From Lamellibrachia columna (lineage: Eukaryota; Annelida; Polychaeta; Sabellida; Siboglinidae), in the NCBI GenBank assembly GCA_963662155.1, contig OY759263.1, positions 25,484,048 through 25,548,047 of the forward strand: a stretch of DNA of 64,000 nt. The letters run 5' to 3'. The notes under the pieces were generated by a model. The model searched no databases. It had not been told where the DNA came from and saw nothing but the letters and a program-made list of their open reading frames with translations. The translations under genes and the position numbers were made by a program. Shown here one piece after another: positions 3,339-61,130 of this stretch (position 1 is its first letter; each line of letters begins with the position of its first letter).

Positions 3339-4408
3339 CAGCCAGCCGCCGCCGTCCGTCTTCATGTCACAGTAGACCGTTACGAACTTCCTCTCCTCGA
3401 CCAGGTAGCTCGCATACACGCCACTGTCCGTGTATCCCTTCTGCAGTAGATCGTAGCAATCTTTGGCATCTGACGTTGTATCAACACTGGACGAGATGAG
3501 TGGAATTAATCAAGCACGACTACATCTTACGAACACATATCACACACAAAACAACACATGACACGAACGGCAACTTTACAAAAACATTTAATATTTGTAT
3601 GTATTATTCTTAGATATTGGTGATGCATGAGATGCAGAAAAGAAAGGGTTCTATGAGGTAATACATTTACACTCAAGCAAACTAGTTGTAAGAAAGCTTA
3701 GATGACCGACCGACCGACCGACCGACCGACCGACCGACCGACCGACCGACCGACCGACCGACCGACCGACCGACCGACCGACCGACCGACCGACCGACCG
3801 ACCGACCGACCGACCGACCGACCGACCGACCGACCGACCGACCGACCGACCGACCGACCGACCGACCGACCGACCGACCGACCGACCGACCGACCGACCG
3901 ACCGACCGACCGACCGACCGACCGACCGACCGACCGACCGACCGACCGACCGACCGACCGACCGACCGACCGACCGACCGACCGACCGACCGACCGACCG
4001 ACCGACCTACTTCCACCTGTAAAGACAGCATATCGTAATTTTAATGTAAAATGTAGGTATATACTTCTATATGACCAAATAGGATGAACAAGTCTACTAC
4101 CGGTTAGACAAAATCACATATTCCTGTTGTTGCTTCGATGAGTCATTGAACTGTTGTTGCAGCTGTTCAATTGACTCTTGGTGTTGTTTTTCCCGTTCCT
4201 CCAGTGAGTCCATACATTGCTGGTGCTGCCGTTCCAGCCGTTCATCGGTGTTCTTCAGGTGAGACACCATCGCCGTCAACACACCGAAGTCGTTGTCGTT
4301 ATCGTCATCAGAACAGTATTTCGTGGTACACTGTGACACGGTTGGTGTTAAATGAACGACGCACACGATAATCCACACTGCCAGGAGACGTGTTGCTTGT
4401 GAATACAT
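3339..4408 (-). pseudogene. FReD lectin pseudogene, unit 0 (exons 1-2)
   Basis: Minus-strand 5' fragment paralogous to the gene at 48051-56407. Exon 1 starts at ATG 4408 and encodes the same signal peptide type (MYSQATRLLAVWIIVCVVHL) and Gln-rich coiled coil. It diverges after the shared YVI and meets a TAG three to four codons later, at 4097-4099; the last dozen codons and the donor seen in the intact gene are absent. Exon 2 (3486-3339, acceptor TCGTCCAG, donor GTAGG) encodes KDCYDLLQKGYTDSGVYA and CDMKTDGGGWL. It is 148 nt against 149 in the intact gene: a one-base loss near its start breaks the frame inherited from exon 1. Exons 3-5 are not seen. It is called a pseudogene, although exon 2 itself is well preserved and could still be a conversion donor. 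Confidence 0.85.
3704..4007. repeat. (GACC)n tetranucleotide, intron 1 of unit 0
   Basis: 304 bp, about 76 uninterrupted units. On the gene's sense strand it reads (CGGT)n, the same motif and orientation as the 537-bp array in intron 1 of the intact paralogue at 48444-48980. Confidence 0.98.
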
Positions 4409-4720
4409 GACAGCGGCTTATAAGGCAGACGTTCACTTAGTTGTCGCAGTCTCGGACAGTTACTGGACTACGTCTCGGCCAGTCAAGCTGATATGCGCGT
4501 CCGGGATCGTGCAACAGAACTTCTAGTCGAACGAAGGAACGTAACTACACCCTACTTCAGAATGTTGTCAAAACCGTTACACTCAGATGGAATGTAACTG
4601 CAGCAAGACAATACGGGCAAACGTTTGCAGCGTACCGATTGGAAACACATTAGGATAGACGGGGTCTATGCAACATTGATTCGCAGTTACAAAACGTTCA
4701 TCGTTTTATAAAAAGAACAA
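4409..4720 (-). promoter_or_regulatory. 5' flank of FReD unit 0
   Basis: Minus-strand sequence upstream of the unit 0 start codon. It aligns by eye with 47850-48050 upstream of the intact gene and with 12580-12750 in unit A. Shared phrases include GGGTGTAGTTA/GCTA, CGATCCCGGAC, and the stretch around GGCCGAGACG. It probably holds the promoter and 5' UTR; no clear TATA box was found, so the transcription start is not placed. Confidence 0.6.
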
Positions 4721-4794
4721 TAAATTATGGATATCTTAATACATGTCACCAAGATTCGTGCAACACATATTTGTGCGAAAGACTATAGGTTCCG

Positions 4795-4935
4795 ATATAT
4801 ATATATATATATATATATATATATATATATATATATATATATATATATATATATATATATATATATATATATATATATATATATATATATATATATATAT
4901 ATATATATATATATATATATATATATATATATATA
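4795..4935. repeat. (AT)n microsatellite
   Basis: About 140 bp of AT, inside the 5'-flank module of unit 0. The equivalent place in unit E (about 61083-61093) has almost no AT expansion, so the array grew after duplication. Confidence 0.97.
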
Positions 4936-5072
4936 ACTATAGGGTCATTGAGGTTACGGTTGCCTAAACATCCGACGCGACGTGTTCAATGAACCGTATC
5001 GACGAACCCGTACAAGTGTGTACTAGGTAGCGCTGTATTTATAAACGAAACTAAACGTTAATTAACAGACTT

Positions 5073-5335
5073 GTGGGGCGCGATAGCTTAGCGATTTGAA
5101 CGTCGGGCACTCAATCGAGTGAACCCGCATTCGAATCATCGTGCTGCCGTTTCGAAGCTAAATGAGTGGCGGATAAGCGAAGGAATAGTCTTCGCGCAAT
5201 AATTGCAGCGTGGTTGAATGCTTCCCAGATCGAGAAGTCGAGATAGCGTTGGAATGAACAGGTCTGCCAGGGGTTGAAGTGTAAAGCACTTTAAACAGTC
5301 TCAAGAACGTACCTTTTATATGAACCAGTTTCCGT
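5073..5335 (+). mobile_element. tRNA-derived SINE-like element
   Basis: The first 75 bases are tRNA-like, with an A-box match (TAGCTTAGCGA, about 5084) and a B-box match (GCATTCGAATC, about 5127). These are spaced as in a tRNA gene but without a convincing cloverleaf. The body continues to about 5335 with phrases such as AAGTGTAAAGCACTTTAAAC. No terminal poly(A) was identified. A tRNA pseudogene is the alternative. Confidence 0.5.
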
Positions 5336-5339
5336 GTAT

Positions 5340-58745: not shown

Positions 58746-59915
58746 AGGGTCACCAGTGGATGTTGTTTACTTAGATTTTCAGAAAGCTTTCGATAAAGTG
58801 CCATATCAAAGATTGTTACTTAAACTAAAAGCCCATGTAATAGGCAATGATGTAATTAACTGGATAGAAAAGTAGCTTATACACAGAAGACAGAGAGTAA
58901 TAGTAGATGGTGAGATTTCAAACTGGAAATCTGTTTTGAGTGGGGTACCACAGGGATCAGTACTAGGCCCTATACTCTTTTTAATATATATAAATGATAT
59001 AGAAGATGACATATCTAGCTAAGTACTAAAATTTGCAGATGACACAAAAGTATTCCGAAAGGTTACTAATGATACAGATAAACAATTTAAAGGATGGTCA
59101 GAAAAATTACAAATGTTTTTTCAATTTTGGGAAGTGTAAATGTATACACATATGACATGGAAACATGGACGAAGAATATCAAATGGGGGGTGCTGTACTA
59201 GGTAGAACCACACAAGAAAAGGACATAGGAGTAACATTTAGTACTGACATGAAAGTTTCAGAGCAATGTGGGATTGCTGCTTCGAAAGGAAATCAAATTC
59301 TAGGGCTAACTAGGAGAACTATCATGTGTAAGGAGAAACAGCTAATTGTACCCCTGTAGAAAGCAATAGTTAGACCACATTTGGAATATTGTATTCAAGC
59401 ATGGAGGCCATATCGTAAAAAGGACATAGACAAGCTAGAAAGAATACAACGAAGAGCAACTAAAATGATTCCATAATTGAGAGACCTTAGTTGCGAAAGT
59501 CGCTAATTACAAGTTGGTTTGACAACACTAGAGACCAGGAGACTAAGCGGAGACAAAATAGAAGTGTTTAAAATAGTGAATGGTTATGAGGATGTTAATA
59601 GGAATATGTTCTTCAAACTTAAAGAAGGCAGTAGAACCAGAGGACACAAAGCAGCATTAGTTAAGGAACAGTGTAGTTTGGACATGAGAAAGTACTCTTT
59701 CTCACAGAAGGTGATAAATGAATGGAACAAACTACCAAATGATTGTTTTAATGCTAGTAGTGTGAATATGTTTAAAAATAGAATTGACAGATATTTGATG
59801 AGGGCGGGCTACACATAGATGAGAAAATTGTTGGACTCTCGATAAGTCAATGGCTTCCTTTTCCACTTGCCATCTGGAACTTGTTATTTGGGATGGCAAT
59901 CTTATTAAATCTTGT
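58746..59915 (+). mobile_element. Family 1 LINE, RT to 3' end
   Basis: The RT block (58746-59130) reads VDVVYLDFQKAFDKVPYQRL, VLSGVPQGSVLGPILFLIYI and KFADDTKVF. The post-RT part (59165-59818) has VSEQCGIAASKGNQILGL and FSQKVINEWNKLPN. It ends at about 59915 after AATCTTATTAAATCTTGTT. Several stops are present. It abuts the inverted unit E intron module. Confidence 0.87.
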
Positions 59916-59924
59916 TAATTTTTG

Positions 59925-60560
59925 AACATAATACAGAACACATTATATTCGTTATTGTAATGTTAACTGCTGGTATTAATGCAGCTAAATTACTAAAATA
60001 TGCATATTTTAAACTTGTACACTTGAACGAACGCAGTGCCACTTATAACATACACATATTTCTTGATATTTGTGGAGATCGAAAAATGTTTCGTGGAATG
60101 GAATTCAACTTGAGAAGTCGAACGGAGTCATGCTCGTGTAAACTTTCTCTTTACGTTACGGCTAGGACAAAACCTTTATCTTTTAAAATTGCATTTTAAT
60201 TTTTACAAGATGATAATATTATGTTGGGGTATTTCTTTGGGATATCCCAAAAATGCCGACCAACATGCATTTCATATAGGTAAAATGTGGTGAACATGTT
60301 TTTATATATGAATTAGAGATAACAATTGTATGGACACTGATTTTCAGCGAACGCAGGAAACGAACAGAATTCACGAAATCCATGGTTAGAAACCGAATTC
60401 ACCCTTTTCGAACGGACATTCCGTGATCGAGGAAAACGTACAGAATATACGGAATCGACGTTTTGAAACAGAATTTAACACCTCAAACAGAAATTCAACT
60501 TGGTATCAACGACAATGCAAATACACATGTATATTTAGCACAACATCGAGGACGAACTGT
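59925..60560 (-). other. Intron 4 module of FReD unit E (inverted relic)
   Basis: Reverse complement of about 26940-26320 and 17740-17310 (GTTAACATTA region, GTGATCGAGG, GAATATACGGAATCGA, ACCTCAAAC). No exon 5 is present. At 60565 it joins a Gypsy fragment at a more internal point than in units A and B, implying a deletion of about 0.7-0.9 kb between them. Confidence 0.75.
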
Positions 60561-60564
60561 TGCA

Positions 60565-60840
60565 AAACTGTGAGAATCTGTGGAGATATCAAGGTAACCA
60601 CCAATCCGAATGTGGAACTGGGACATTACCCGCTGCCCAACATGGAAGATCTCTTCGCGTTATTAGTCGGTGGTAAAGTGTTCAACGAACTTGATATATT
60701 GCTCGCATACTAGCAGTTGGAGCTGGATGCCGTATAACAACACTATGTGACCGTGAACACCCACAGAGGAATCTATGACAACGTACGTATGCCATACGGG
60801 GTAAGCAGTACTCCACGTATCTTCCACGGGGGTCTGCGCA
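60565..60840 (+). mobile_element. Gypsy-type retrotransposon relic 3
   Basis: Encodes VRICGDIKVTTNPNVELGHY, NMEDLFALLVGGKVFNELDI and, after stops, RGIYDNVRMPYGVSSTPRIF. Overlaps relics 1 and 2 and gives the uninterrupted form of the site where relic 2 has its TG array. Here it is on the plus strand, consistent with unit E being inverted. Confidence 0.82.
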
Positions 60841-60844
60841 ACAA

Positions 60845-61130
60845 TGATTCGCAGTTAGAAAATAGTTATCGTTTTACAAAAAGAGGACAATGCGATATCT
60901 TAAAACATGTCATCAAGACGAGATGAATAAGTAAGGGCGGTGTTTTAGTTCGGATGACAGACTATGCACATGGTGATTGGATATTTGTATTGAGTAAATG
61001 TTGTGCCTTTTTTCAGTTCATAATGTTCCCTGCAAATGCAATGGATTAGTGCAACACATATTTGCGTGAAAGACTATACGCTCCAATATACATAACTACT
61101 GGGTCAATGAGGTCGCGCTCGCCGGCTACT
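60845..61130 (-). promoter_or_regulatory. 5'-flank relic of FReD unit E
   Basis: Same-strand match to 4685-4960 (ATGATTCGCAGTTA-like, TGCAACACATATTTG, GTGAAAGACTATA), so it represents a minus-oriented 5' flank. A roughly 100-bp segment at 60925-61030 corresponds to part of 12290-12380 inverted. Confidence 0.6.

What the first reader, a model, noticed from the sequence alone, without database searches (positions are those of the whole stretch)
3339..61130. Six-unit mosaic FReD cluster with exon-level loss and inversion
Units 0, A, B, C, D and E each keep a different subset of the same gene's 5' flank, exons, introns and 3' flank. The flanking units 0 and E are inverted relative to A-D. Several broken units keep single intact exons (A exon 4, C exon 5, 0 exon 2). 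This looks like a birth-and-death lectin locus where relic exons could act as sequence donors for the one intact gene, similar in principle to the diversified FREP families of molluscs.
Basis: partly seen in the sequence, partly recalled or inferred. Interest (0 to 1): 0.8.

Follow-up and report, generated by a model that had tools for sequence, protein, structure and literature searches.

The report
Mosaic lectin gene array in tubeworm
A deep-sea tubeworm carries a two-megabase array of ficolin-like lectin genes whose exons have been shuffled between copies, and the exon that encodes the sugar-binding pocket varies most, which suggests a way of making a broad set of recognition proteins without antibodies.

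Summary
The units exist largely as described, with corrections. The 'six-unit cluster' is a slice of an array with at least 56 exon-5 places over 2 Mb. Genes encode signal peptide, coiled coil and fibrinogen-related domain (FReD). D is the window's intact gene, but D2 and J nearby are intact too. A block holding units and relics recurs 71.7 kb away. Exon trees conflict: the exon-2 split is rejected by exons 1, 4 and 5, not 3. One exchange is shown: lone exon 5 C equals that of intact gene J (240/240 nt), switching to D-type flank within 21 bp of the stop codon; direction unknown. D shows no import from the window's relics. Exon-5 codons matching published FIBCD1 ligand contacts are hypervariable (dN/dS 1.41, interval 0.94-2.21, against 0.61; permutation p 5e-5), while calcium site and disulfide mostly persist. 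Best reading: germline birth-and-death plus ectopic exchange of exon modules that diversifies a lectin pocket. Expression and somatic use are untested.

The parts
4112..4408 (-). Unit 0 exon 1 (signal peptide and coiled-coil start), 3' end and donor lost
3339..3486 (-). Unit 0 exon 2, open over the conserved part but 1 bp short, so out of frame with its splice phase
14385..14549 (+). Unit A exon 4, open, splice sites kept; 98% identical to exon 4 of unit H
17840..18084 (+). Unit A exon 5 with in-frame TGA; 94-96% identical to A2, A3, A4
20650..20694 (+). Extra fragment of an exon-4 3' end upstream of unit B
21677..22221 (+). Unit B exon 3, split (21677-21736 and 22183-22221) by an insertion; the same split recurs in copy B2
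23027..23210 (+). Unit B exon 4, frameshifted; the same break recurs in copy B2
42081..43775 (+). Stretch of unit C shared with intact gene J (97.2% over 42081-43127, 99.0% over 43388-43775; a TG repeat between)
43526..43770 (+). Unit C lone exon 5, open, acceptor kept; 240 of 240 coding nt (stop left out) identical to exon 5 of gene J and to the copy at 25.234 Mb
48051..48372 (+). Gene D exon 1: signal peptide and coiled coil (by eye and hydropathy)
48443..48980 (+). (GTCG)n repeat in intron 1 of D; counterpart (GACC)n at 3704-4007 in unit 0
49138..49286 (+). Gene D exon 2 (alpha class)
49754..49850 (+). Gene D exon 3
54484..54648 (+). Gene D exon 4
56169..56407 (+). Gene D exon 5: calcium site, disulfide and ligand pocket; lacks the two residues matching FIBCD1 431-432
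59946..61113 (-). Unit E: inverted intron pieces, no exon match
16272..64000 (+). Block (3' part of A, B, C, D, E) repeated about 71.7 kb downstream, listed main segments 92-98.7% identical

Best explanation
The locus is part of a large germline array of secreted lectin genes of the ficolin/tachylectin-5 kind: signal peptide, coiled coil, fibrinogen-related domain, five exons. Copies arise and vanish by segmental duplication and deletion, so broken units ride along as passengers. Ectopic recombination or gene conversion between copies reassorts exons into new mosaics; this is shown as sequence pattern. Exon 5 carries the calcium site, the disulfide and the ligand pocket, and the pocket residues vary most while the frame is conserved; this is shown. 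Inferred: copies are favoured for recognising different microbial or symbiont glycans, and exchange of exon 5 is one way a gene body gets a new specificity. Not shown: expression, oligomers, ligands, somatic change, and any donor role of the relics.
For: 56 exon-5 places and 48 exon-1 places in 2 Mb. Repeated block with relic B copied together with its lesions. Exon-2 classes with 100/100 support are rejected by exon 1 (p 6e-57), exon 4 (0.001) and exon 5 (0.029). PHI p 0.001 for exons 1-5 (5 units) and 0.027 for exons 2-5 (8 units). C-to-D junction in gene J: 60 of 62 and 105 of 109 informative sites on either side, switch within 21 bp around the stop codon. Contact codons dN/dS 1.41 against 0.61, permutation p 5e-5 in 36 representatives of 54 exon 5s. 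53 of 56 exon-5 matches have no in-frame stop.
Against: The bootstrap interval of the contact dN/dS is 0.94-2.21, so it is not clearly above 1. The exon-2 split is not rejected by exon 3 (p 0.185). PHI inside exon 5 is weak, and for exon 5 with flanks in all 15 units it is not significant (p 0.39). Many units read here are defective: A2 and A4 gave no exon 1, A3 has AA for AG at the exon-2 acceptor, H has a stop at codon 3, G has a frameshift in exon 1 and G2 lacks most of exon 3. No expression or ligand data.
Confidence: 0.72

Rival explanations
1. Plain birth-and-death. Duplication, unequal crossing-over and decay alone made the mosaics; lone exons are debris and exon-5 variability is relaxed constraint in redundant copies.
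For: Many units carry lesions. Relic B is copied passively. One C-to-D junction can come from a single unequal crossover or deletion. The contact dN/dS interval includes 1.
Against: Variation is concentrated at ligand-contact codons, permutation p 5e-5, while the frame (W437, Y423, S446 in 36 of 36; C401 in 35 of 36) is kept. Relaxation alone would not place changes there. J has two junctions, not one.
Confidence: 0.2
2. Cassette or donor system: lone terminal exons such as C serve as a standing bank from which intact genes take new exon 5s, in the germline or somatically.
For: Lone C exon 5 is identical to that of intact gene J; the right edge lies at the stop codon. Four lone exon 5s in the stretch read (C, C2, F, F2) are open.
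Against: Direction unknown. One clear case only. D shows no import from the window's relics. No cDNA or tissue data.
Confidence: 0.15
3. Assembly artefact: near-identical copies are uncollapsed haplotypes and the junctions are misjoins.
For: The copy at -293.7 kb is 99.3-99.6% identical in the C and D stretches, within the reported heterozygosity of 1.59%; the assembly has 706 gaps.
Against: Around unit A the same block is only 93.6-95% identical. The +71.7 kb block (92-98.7%) and the 36 exon-5 groups below 95% are mostly too diverged for alleles. J differs from C by 1-3% and from D by 0-4% next to the junction, so it is not a join of those two sequences. Published assembly was purged and curated.
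Confidence: 0.07

Closest known systems
FReD lectins: ficolins, tachylectin-5A, FIBCD1
   Same: Fibrinogen_C domain E 2e-75; best PDB matches ficolin-1 for D and FIBCD1 for exon 5 of G; calcium Asp pair kept in 46 of 54 and the disulfide pair in 50 of 54 exon 5s
   Different: Coiled coil and no collagen domain in D; canonical S1 acetyl pocket kept in 1 of 54 exon 5s under a relaxed rule, and two more keep Y405, H415, Y431 and A432
Mollusc FREPs (Biomphalaria)
   Same: Diversified FReD repertoire; gene conversion and point mutation named as sources (PMC12074976, passages)
   Different: FREPs have N-terminal IgSF domains; none found in D. Their somatic diversification is untested here
Sea urchin Sp185/333 clusters
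   Same: [quoted passage not shown] here (GTCG)n in intron 1 of several units
   Different: Unrelated proteins; there the repeats flank the genes, here the repeat noted is in an intron
FReD transcripts of the gutless annelid Olavius algarvensis
   Same: Many FReD transcripts in a symbiotic annelid: 27 unigenes, 161 in brackets in Table 1 (PMC5117596, passages)
   Different: Transcriptome; the passages seen give no genomic arrangement

Membership tests
Fibrinogen_C (FReD) proteins, PF00147 | Fibrinogen C-terminal globular domain | tested here: met
   253.7 bits against a cut-off of 22, residues 115-323 of D
Ficolins | Collagen-like domain before the FReD | tested here: not met
   No collagen match in D; coiled coil instead
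Acetyl-binding FReD lectins (FIBCD1, TL5A, M-ficolin) | S1 pocket Y405, H415, Y431, A432, aromatic 443 | tested here: not met
   D has C, S, gap, gap, S at these places; 1 of 54 exon 5s keeps all under a relaxed rule
Acetyl-binding FReD lectins (FIBCD1, TL5A, M-ficolin) | Calcium site and C401-C414 disulfide | tested here: met
   Present in D; 46 of 54 and 50 of 54 exon 5s
Mollusc FREPs | N-terminal IgSF domain(s) | tested here: not met
   No IgSF match in D; definition from PMC12074976
Mollusc FREPs | Somatic diversification | not testable with these tools
   One assembly, no reads or cDNA
Genes diversified by ectopic recombination | Conflicting histories of parts of the same gene | tested here: met
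   AU tests and J junction; exon 3 not in conflict
Donor (pseudogene-templated) systems | Transfer from relic to functional gene | tested here: inconclusive
   C and J share a tract, direction unknown; D shows none from the window's relics

The most novel reading that the evidence does not exclude
A cassette system in which terminal exons that encode only the ligand-binding part of a lectin, some of them standing alone, are exchanged between gene bodies in the germline, and perhaps in somatic tissue, so that a chemosymbiotic worm keeps generating new glycan specificities for defence or for symbiont choice.
Probability: 0.2. Interest if true: 0.85.

Novelty: new variant of a known kind. Interest (0 to 1): 0.57.

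Why it matters
Vestimentiferan tubeworms take up their symbionts from the environment (recalled) and must tell them from other bacteria. The Paraescarpia genome paper says that lectins have not expanded in vestimentiferans (passage), and the Riftia paper reports no extensive immune remodelling except sushi genes (passage). A 2-Mb FReD array with a hypervariable pocket in a Lamellibrachia would change that picture and gives concrete proteins for binding tests. It also offers a lectin array in which exon-level exchange could be dated and given a direction with haplotypes and sister species.

Tried and rejected
Rejected: (1) D as the sole functional gene fed by relics: D2 and J are intact too, and D shows no tract from the window's relics. 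Gene I has an open frame throughout, but its exon-1 donor follows CACG rather than AAG, so I do not count it as certain. (2) Independent origin of the exons: each exon is homologous across units. (3) C exon 5 as the missing exon 5 of B: B has its own 3' part of intron 4 at 26.3-26.8 kb. Led nowhere: Pfam on six other window ORFs named two, HSP70 and a reverse transcriptase, and none for four. A first profile search had three of six queries on the wrong strand and was redone. COX1: best match 94% without a name, best named match 88% (a Siboglinidae cluster), so COX1 did not give the genus; the species comes from chromosome lengths. The census of exons 2 and 4 never ran. Rows dropped: of 56 exon-5 places one (24376766) was not fetched and one (L051) was left out because part reads N; 54 were tested, cut to 36 representatives below 95% identity.
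Full report
Where it is. The window is C3:25484048-25548047 of a genome of 879,693,805 bases in 30 contigs. Five contig lengths shown by the tools (C2 67.76, C3 66.82, C10 56.89, C14 49.26, C15 46.62 Mb) equal the chromosome table of Lamellibrachia columna wsLamColu1.1, total 879.73 Mb, 15 chromosomes (PMC13080331, passages); C12 is 50.83 here against 50.84 there. The best named COX1 match is a Siboglinidae cluster at 88%; an unnamed protein matches at 94%. For gene D the lowest E-value is a Branchiostoma floridae protein (54% over 72%), but the best matches over most of the length are siboglinid: Lamellibrachia satsuma 61% over 88%, Ridgeia piscesae 57% over 94%. 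No tool stated the species; the name rests on the lengths.

The observation. Self-BLAST gives many intron- and flank-level matches among the units. A profile of the genome's own FReDs, tblastn with single exons and blastn with D's exons place the pieces. Unit 0 (minus): exon 1 without its donor end, exon 2 one base short. Unit A: intact exon 4, exon 5 with TGA. Unit B: exon 3 split by an insertion, exon 4 frameshifted. Unit C: lone open exon 5. Unit D: complete. Unit E: inverted intron pieces. D's exons (322, 149, 97, 165, 239 nt) have GT-AG junctions and encode 323 aa with a FReD at 115-323. Signal peptide and coiled coil are read by eye and hydropathy, not with a dedicated predictor.

The wider array. 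Exon-5 search finds 56 places on C3:23.78-25.77 Mb, 3 with an in-frame stop (the tool scored 150 of 203 candidates genome-wide). Exon-1 search gives 48 distinct places in the same interval. I read 200 kb downstream. A block matching window 16.3-64 kb recurs at about +71.7 kb with main segments 92-98.7% identical, and parts recur at 217-253 kb in window coordinates. Relic B recurs as B2 with the same exon-3 split and exon-4 break, so it was copied as a relic. Counterparts of unit A (A2, A3, A4) keep exons 2-5, and A3 also exon 1. Intact in all five exons: D, D2, J; I is open throughout but its exon-1 donor context is unusual. D3 at -293.7 kb has exons 2-5 open and an open exon-1 match. Defective in the stretch read: G, G2, H, A3 (acceptor), A2 and A4 (no exon-1 match).

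Mosaicism. Exon 2 falls into class alpha (unit 0, D, D2, D3, H, J) and class beta (G, G2, A2, A3, A4, I), 60-66% identical between classes, support 100/100. Yet exon 1 (first 170 bases) of H and I is 99% identical; exon 3 of J is 97-98% identical to A2, A3, A4 and I; exon 4 of A is 98% identical to H while its exon 5 is 94-96% identical to A2, A3 and A4. AU tests of the exon-2 split on other exons: exon 1 p 6e-57, exon 4 p 0.001, exon 5 p 0.029, exon 3 p 0.185, not rejected. PHI: exons 1-5 of 5 units p 0.001; exons 2-5 of 8 units p 0.027; exon 4 with flank p 0.019; exon 5 alone p 0.05 (15 units) and 0.036 (non-redundant); exon 5 with flanks p 0.39 (15 units) and 0.019 (non-redundant).

One exchange in detail. 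Gene J (exon 1 from C3:25741691, exon 5 25761417-25761661) is complete, 333 aa. Its exon 5 is identical to lone C over 240 coding nt. The match covers window 42081-43127 at 97.2% and 43388-43775 at 99.0%; in J it is about 1.4 kb because the TG repeat of C is missing. Over the 1.7 kb to the left, J's best match among seven units tested is H, G2, A3 or I, 71-94% per 100-bp bin. To the right it is D or D2, 96-100% for the first 900 bases and then 85-100%, with C at 77-86% where it aligns. Of 171 informative sites, 60 of the 62 on the left agree with C and 105 of the 109 on the right agree with D; the switch lies between window positions 43755 and 43776, which hold the stop codon (43768-43770). 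The p-value of 1e-38 is not corrected for choosing the breakpoint. Gene conversion and unequal crossing-over cannot be told apart here, and the direction cannot be read. A C-type copy, C2, lies in the +71.7 kb block (98.75% in exon 5) and another at 25.234 Mb (100%).

D itself. In 100-bp bins, with D3 not included, D's best match is D2 almost throughout; the exceptions are one bin in exon 1 (G2 99%, D2 95%), bins of the (GTCG)n repeat, a tie at 49.5 kb, and about 50.7-51.5 kb, missing from D2. D therefore gives no support to refreshment from the window's relics.

Pocket variation. FIBCD1 ligand-site residues (PMC3908420 and PMC10825690, passages) map without gaps onto exon 5 of unit G. I used 381, 382, 396, 398, 405, 412, 413, 415, 431, 432, 443. 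The list comes from the papers, but I had already seen by eye that exon 5 varies. In 36 representatives of 54 exon 5s, contact codons have dN/dS 1.41 (codon bootstrap 0.94-2.21) against 0.61 (0.46-0.82) for the rest; nonsynonymous variability at contacts beats 20,000 random codon sets, p 5e-5, the floor of that test. With 11 units the figures were 1.45 against 0.73, p 3.5e-4. The distances ignore recombination and are near saturation at contacts. Both calcium Asp residues are kept in 46 of 54, both cysteines in 50 of 54; 43 of 54 pocket strings are distinct. The canonical acetyl pocket survives in 1 of 54 by a relaxed rule; two more keep four of its five residues. D lacks it, so D probably does not bind acetyl groups in the FIBCD1 manner (inference).

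How it works, and what is open. Shown: array, duplication with passengers, conflicting exon histories, one sharp exchange between a lone exon and an intact gene, pocket-focused variability. Inferred: recognition of varied glycans, oligomers, selection by microbes or symbionts. Open: expression, somatic change, donor direction. The -293.7 kb copy (99.3-99.6% in C and D) lies within the reported heterozygosity of 1.59% and could be a residual haplotype; no main conclusion rests on it.

Novelty. Searches of the open library: 8 papers; 57, 15 listed; 989, 15 listed; 12, 10 listed; 63, 15 listed; 5. In the listing the word fibrinogen has no occurrence in the L. luymesi, Riftia, Ridgeia, or L. columna genome papers and one in the Paraescarpia paper, a figure legend. 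None of the titles, abstract openings or passages I saw describes this array; most subscription papers and all supplements were out of reach. Diversified FReD repertoires are a known kind; a Mb-scale tubeworm array with exon-level mosaics and a pocket-bearing terminal exon as the shared module looks like a new variant.

Noticed in passing
window 6947-7528 (+): HSP70 fragment (PF00012, 234 bits, profile 319-501 of 599) beside unit 0, open over 193 aa; possibly a truncated copy.
   Followed up: partly
window 31392-38697: Reverse transcriptase (PF00078) at 32328-32984 (-) between two 1.8-kb repeats 69% identical; an ORF at 36679-37179 (-) looks to me like a tyrosine recombinase (recalled, no Pfam match), so perhaps a DIRS-like element between B and C.
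   Followed up: partly
window 70-764, 9832-10525, 30848-31385, 59226-59918: A repeat of about 0.55-0.7 kb, 89-95% identical, between units and also in the downstream 200 kb; one copy has a 199-aa ORF that resembles the end of a LINE reverse transcriptase (recalled, no Pfam match). Possible substrate for recombination.
   Followed up: partly
window 48443-48980 and 3704-4007; also H and I downstream: (GTCG)n repeats of up to 538 bp in intron 1 at the same place in several units; they may be unstable and promote misalignment.
   Followed up: no
L020 and L026 (window-based coordinates 161012-161714 and 230997-231603): Exon 1 of units H and I is expanded by repeated coiled-coil segments, so stalk length varies between genes.
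   Followed up: no
G000:C4:11.50-11.84 Mb: A second cluster with matches to the same exon 5 (up to 73%) and exon 1 (about 50%); other FReD clusters on C1, C8, C14 and C15.
   Followed up: no
L058-L062 (C3:23.86-24.80 Mb): An exon-5 subgroup that keeps H415, Y431 and a Gly or Ala at 432 but has lost residues after the first calcium Asp; the pocket is more conserved and the calcium loop is altered.
   Followed up: no
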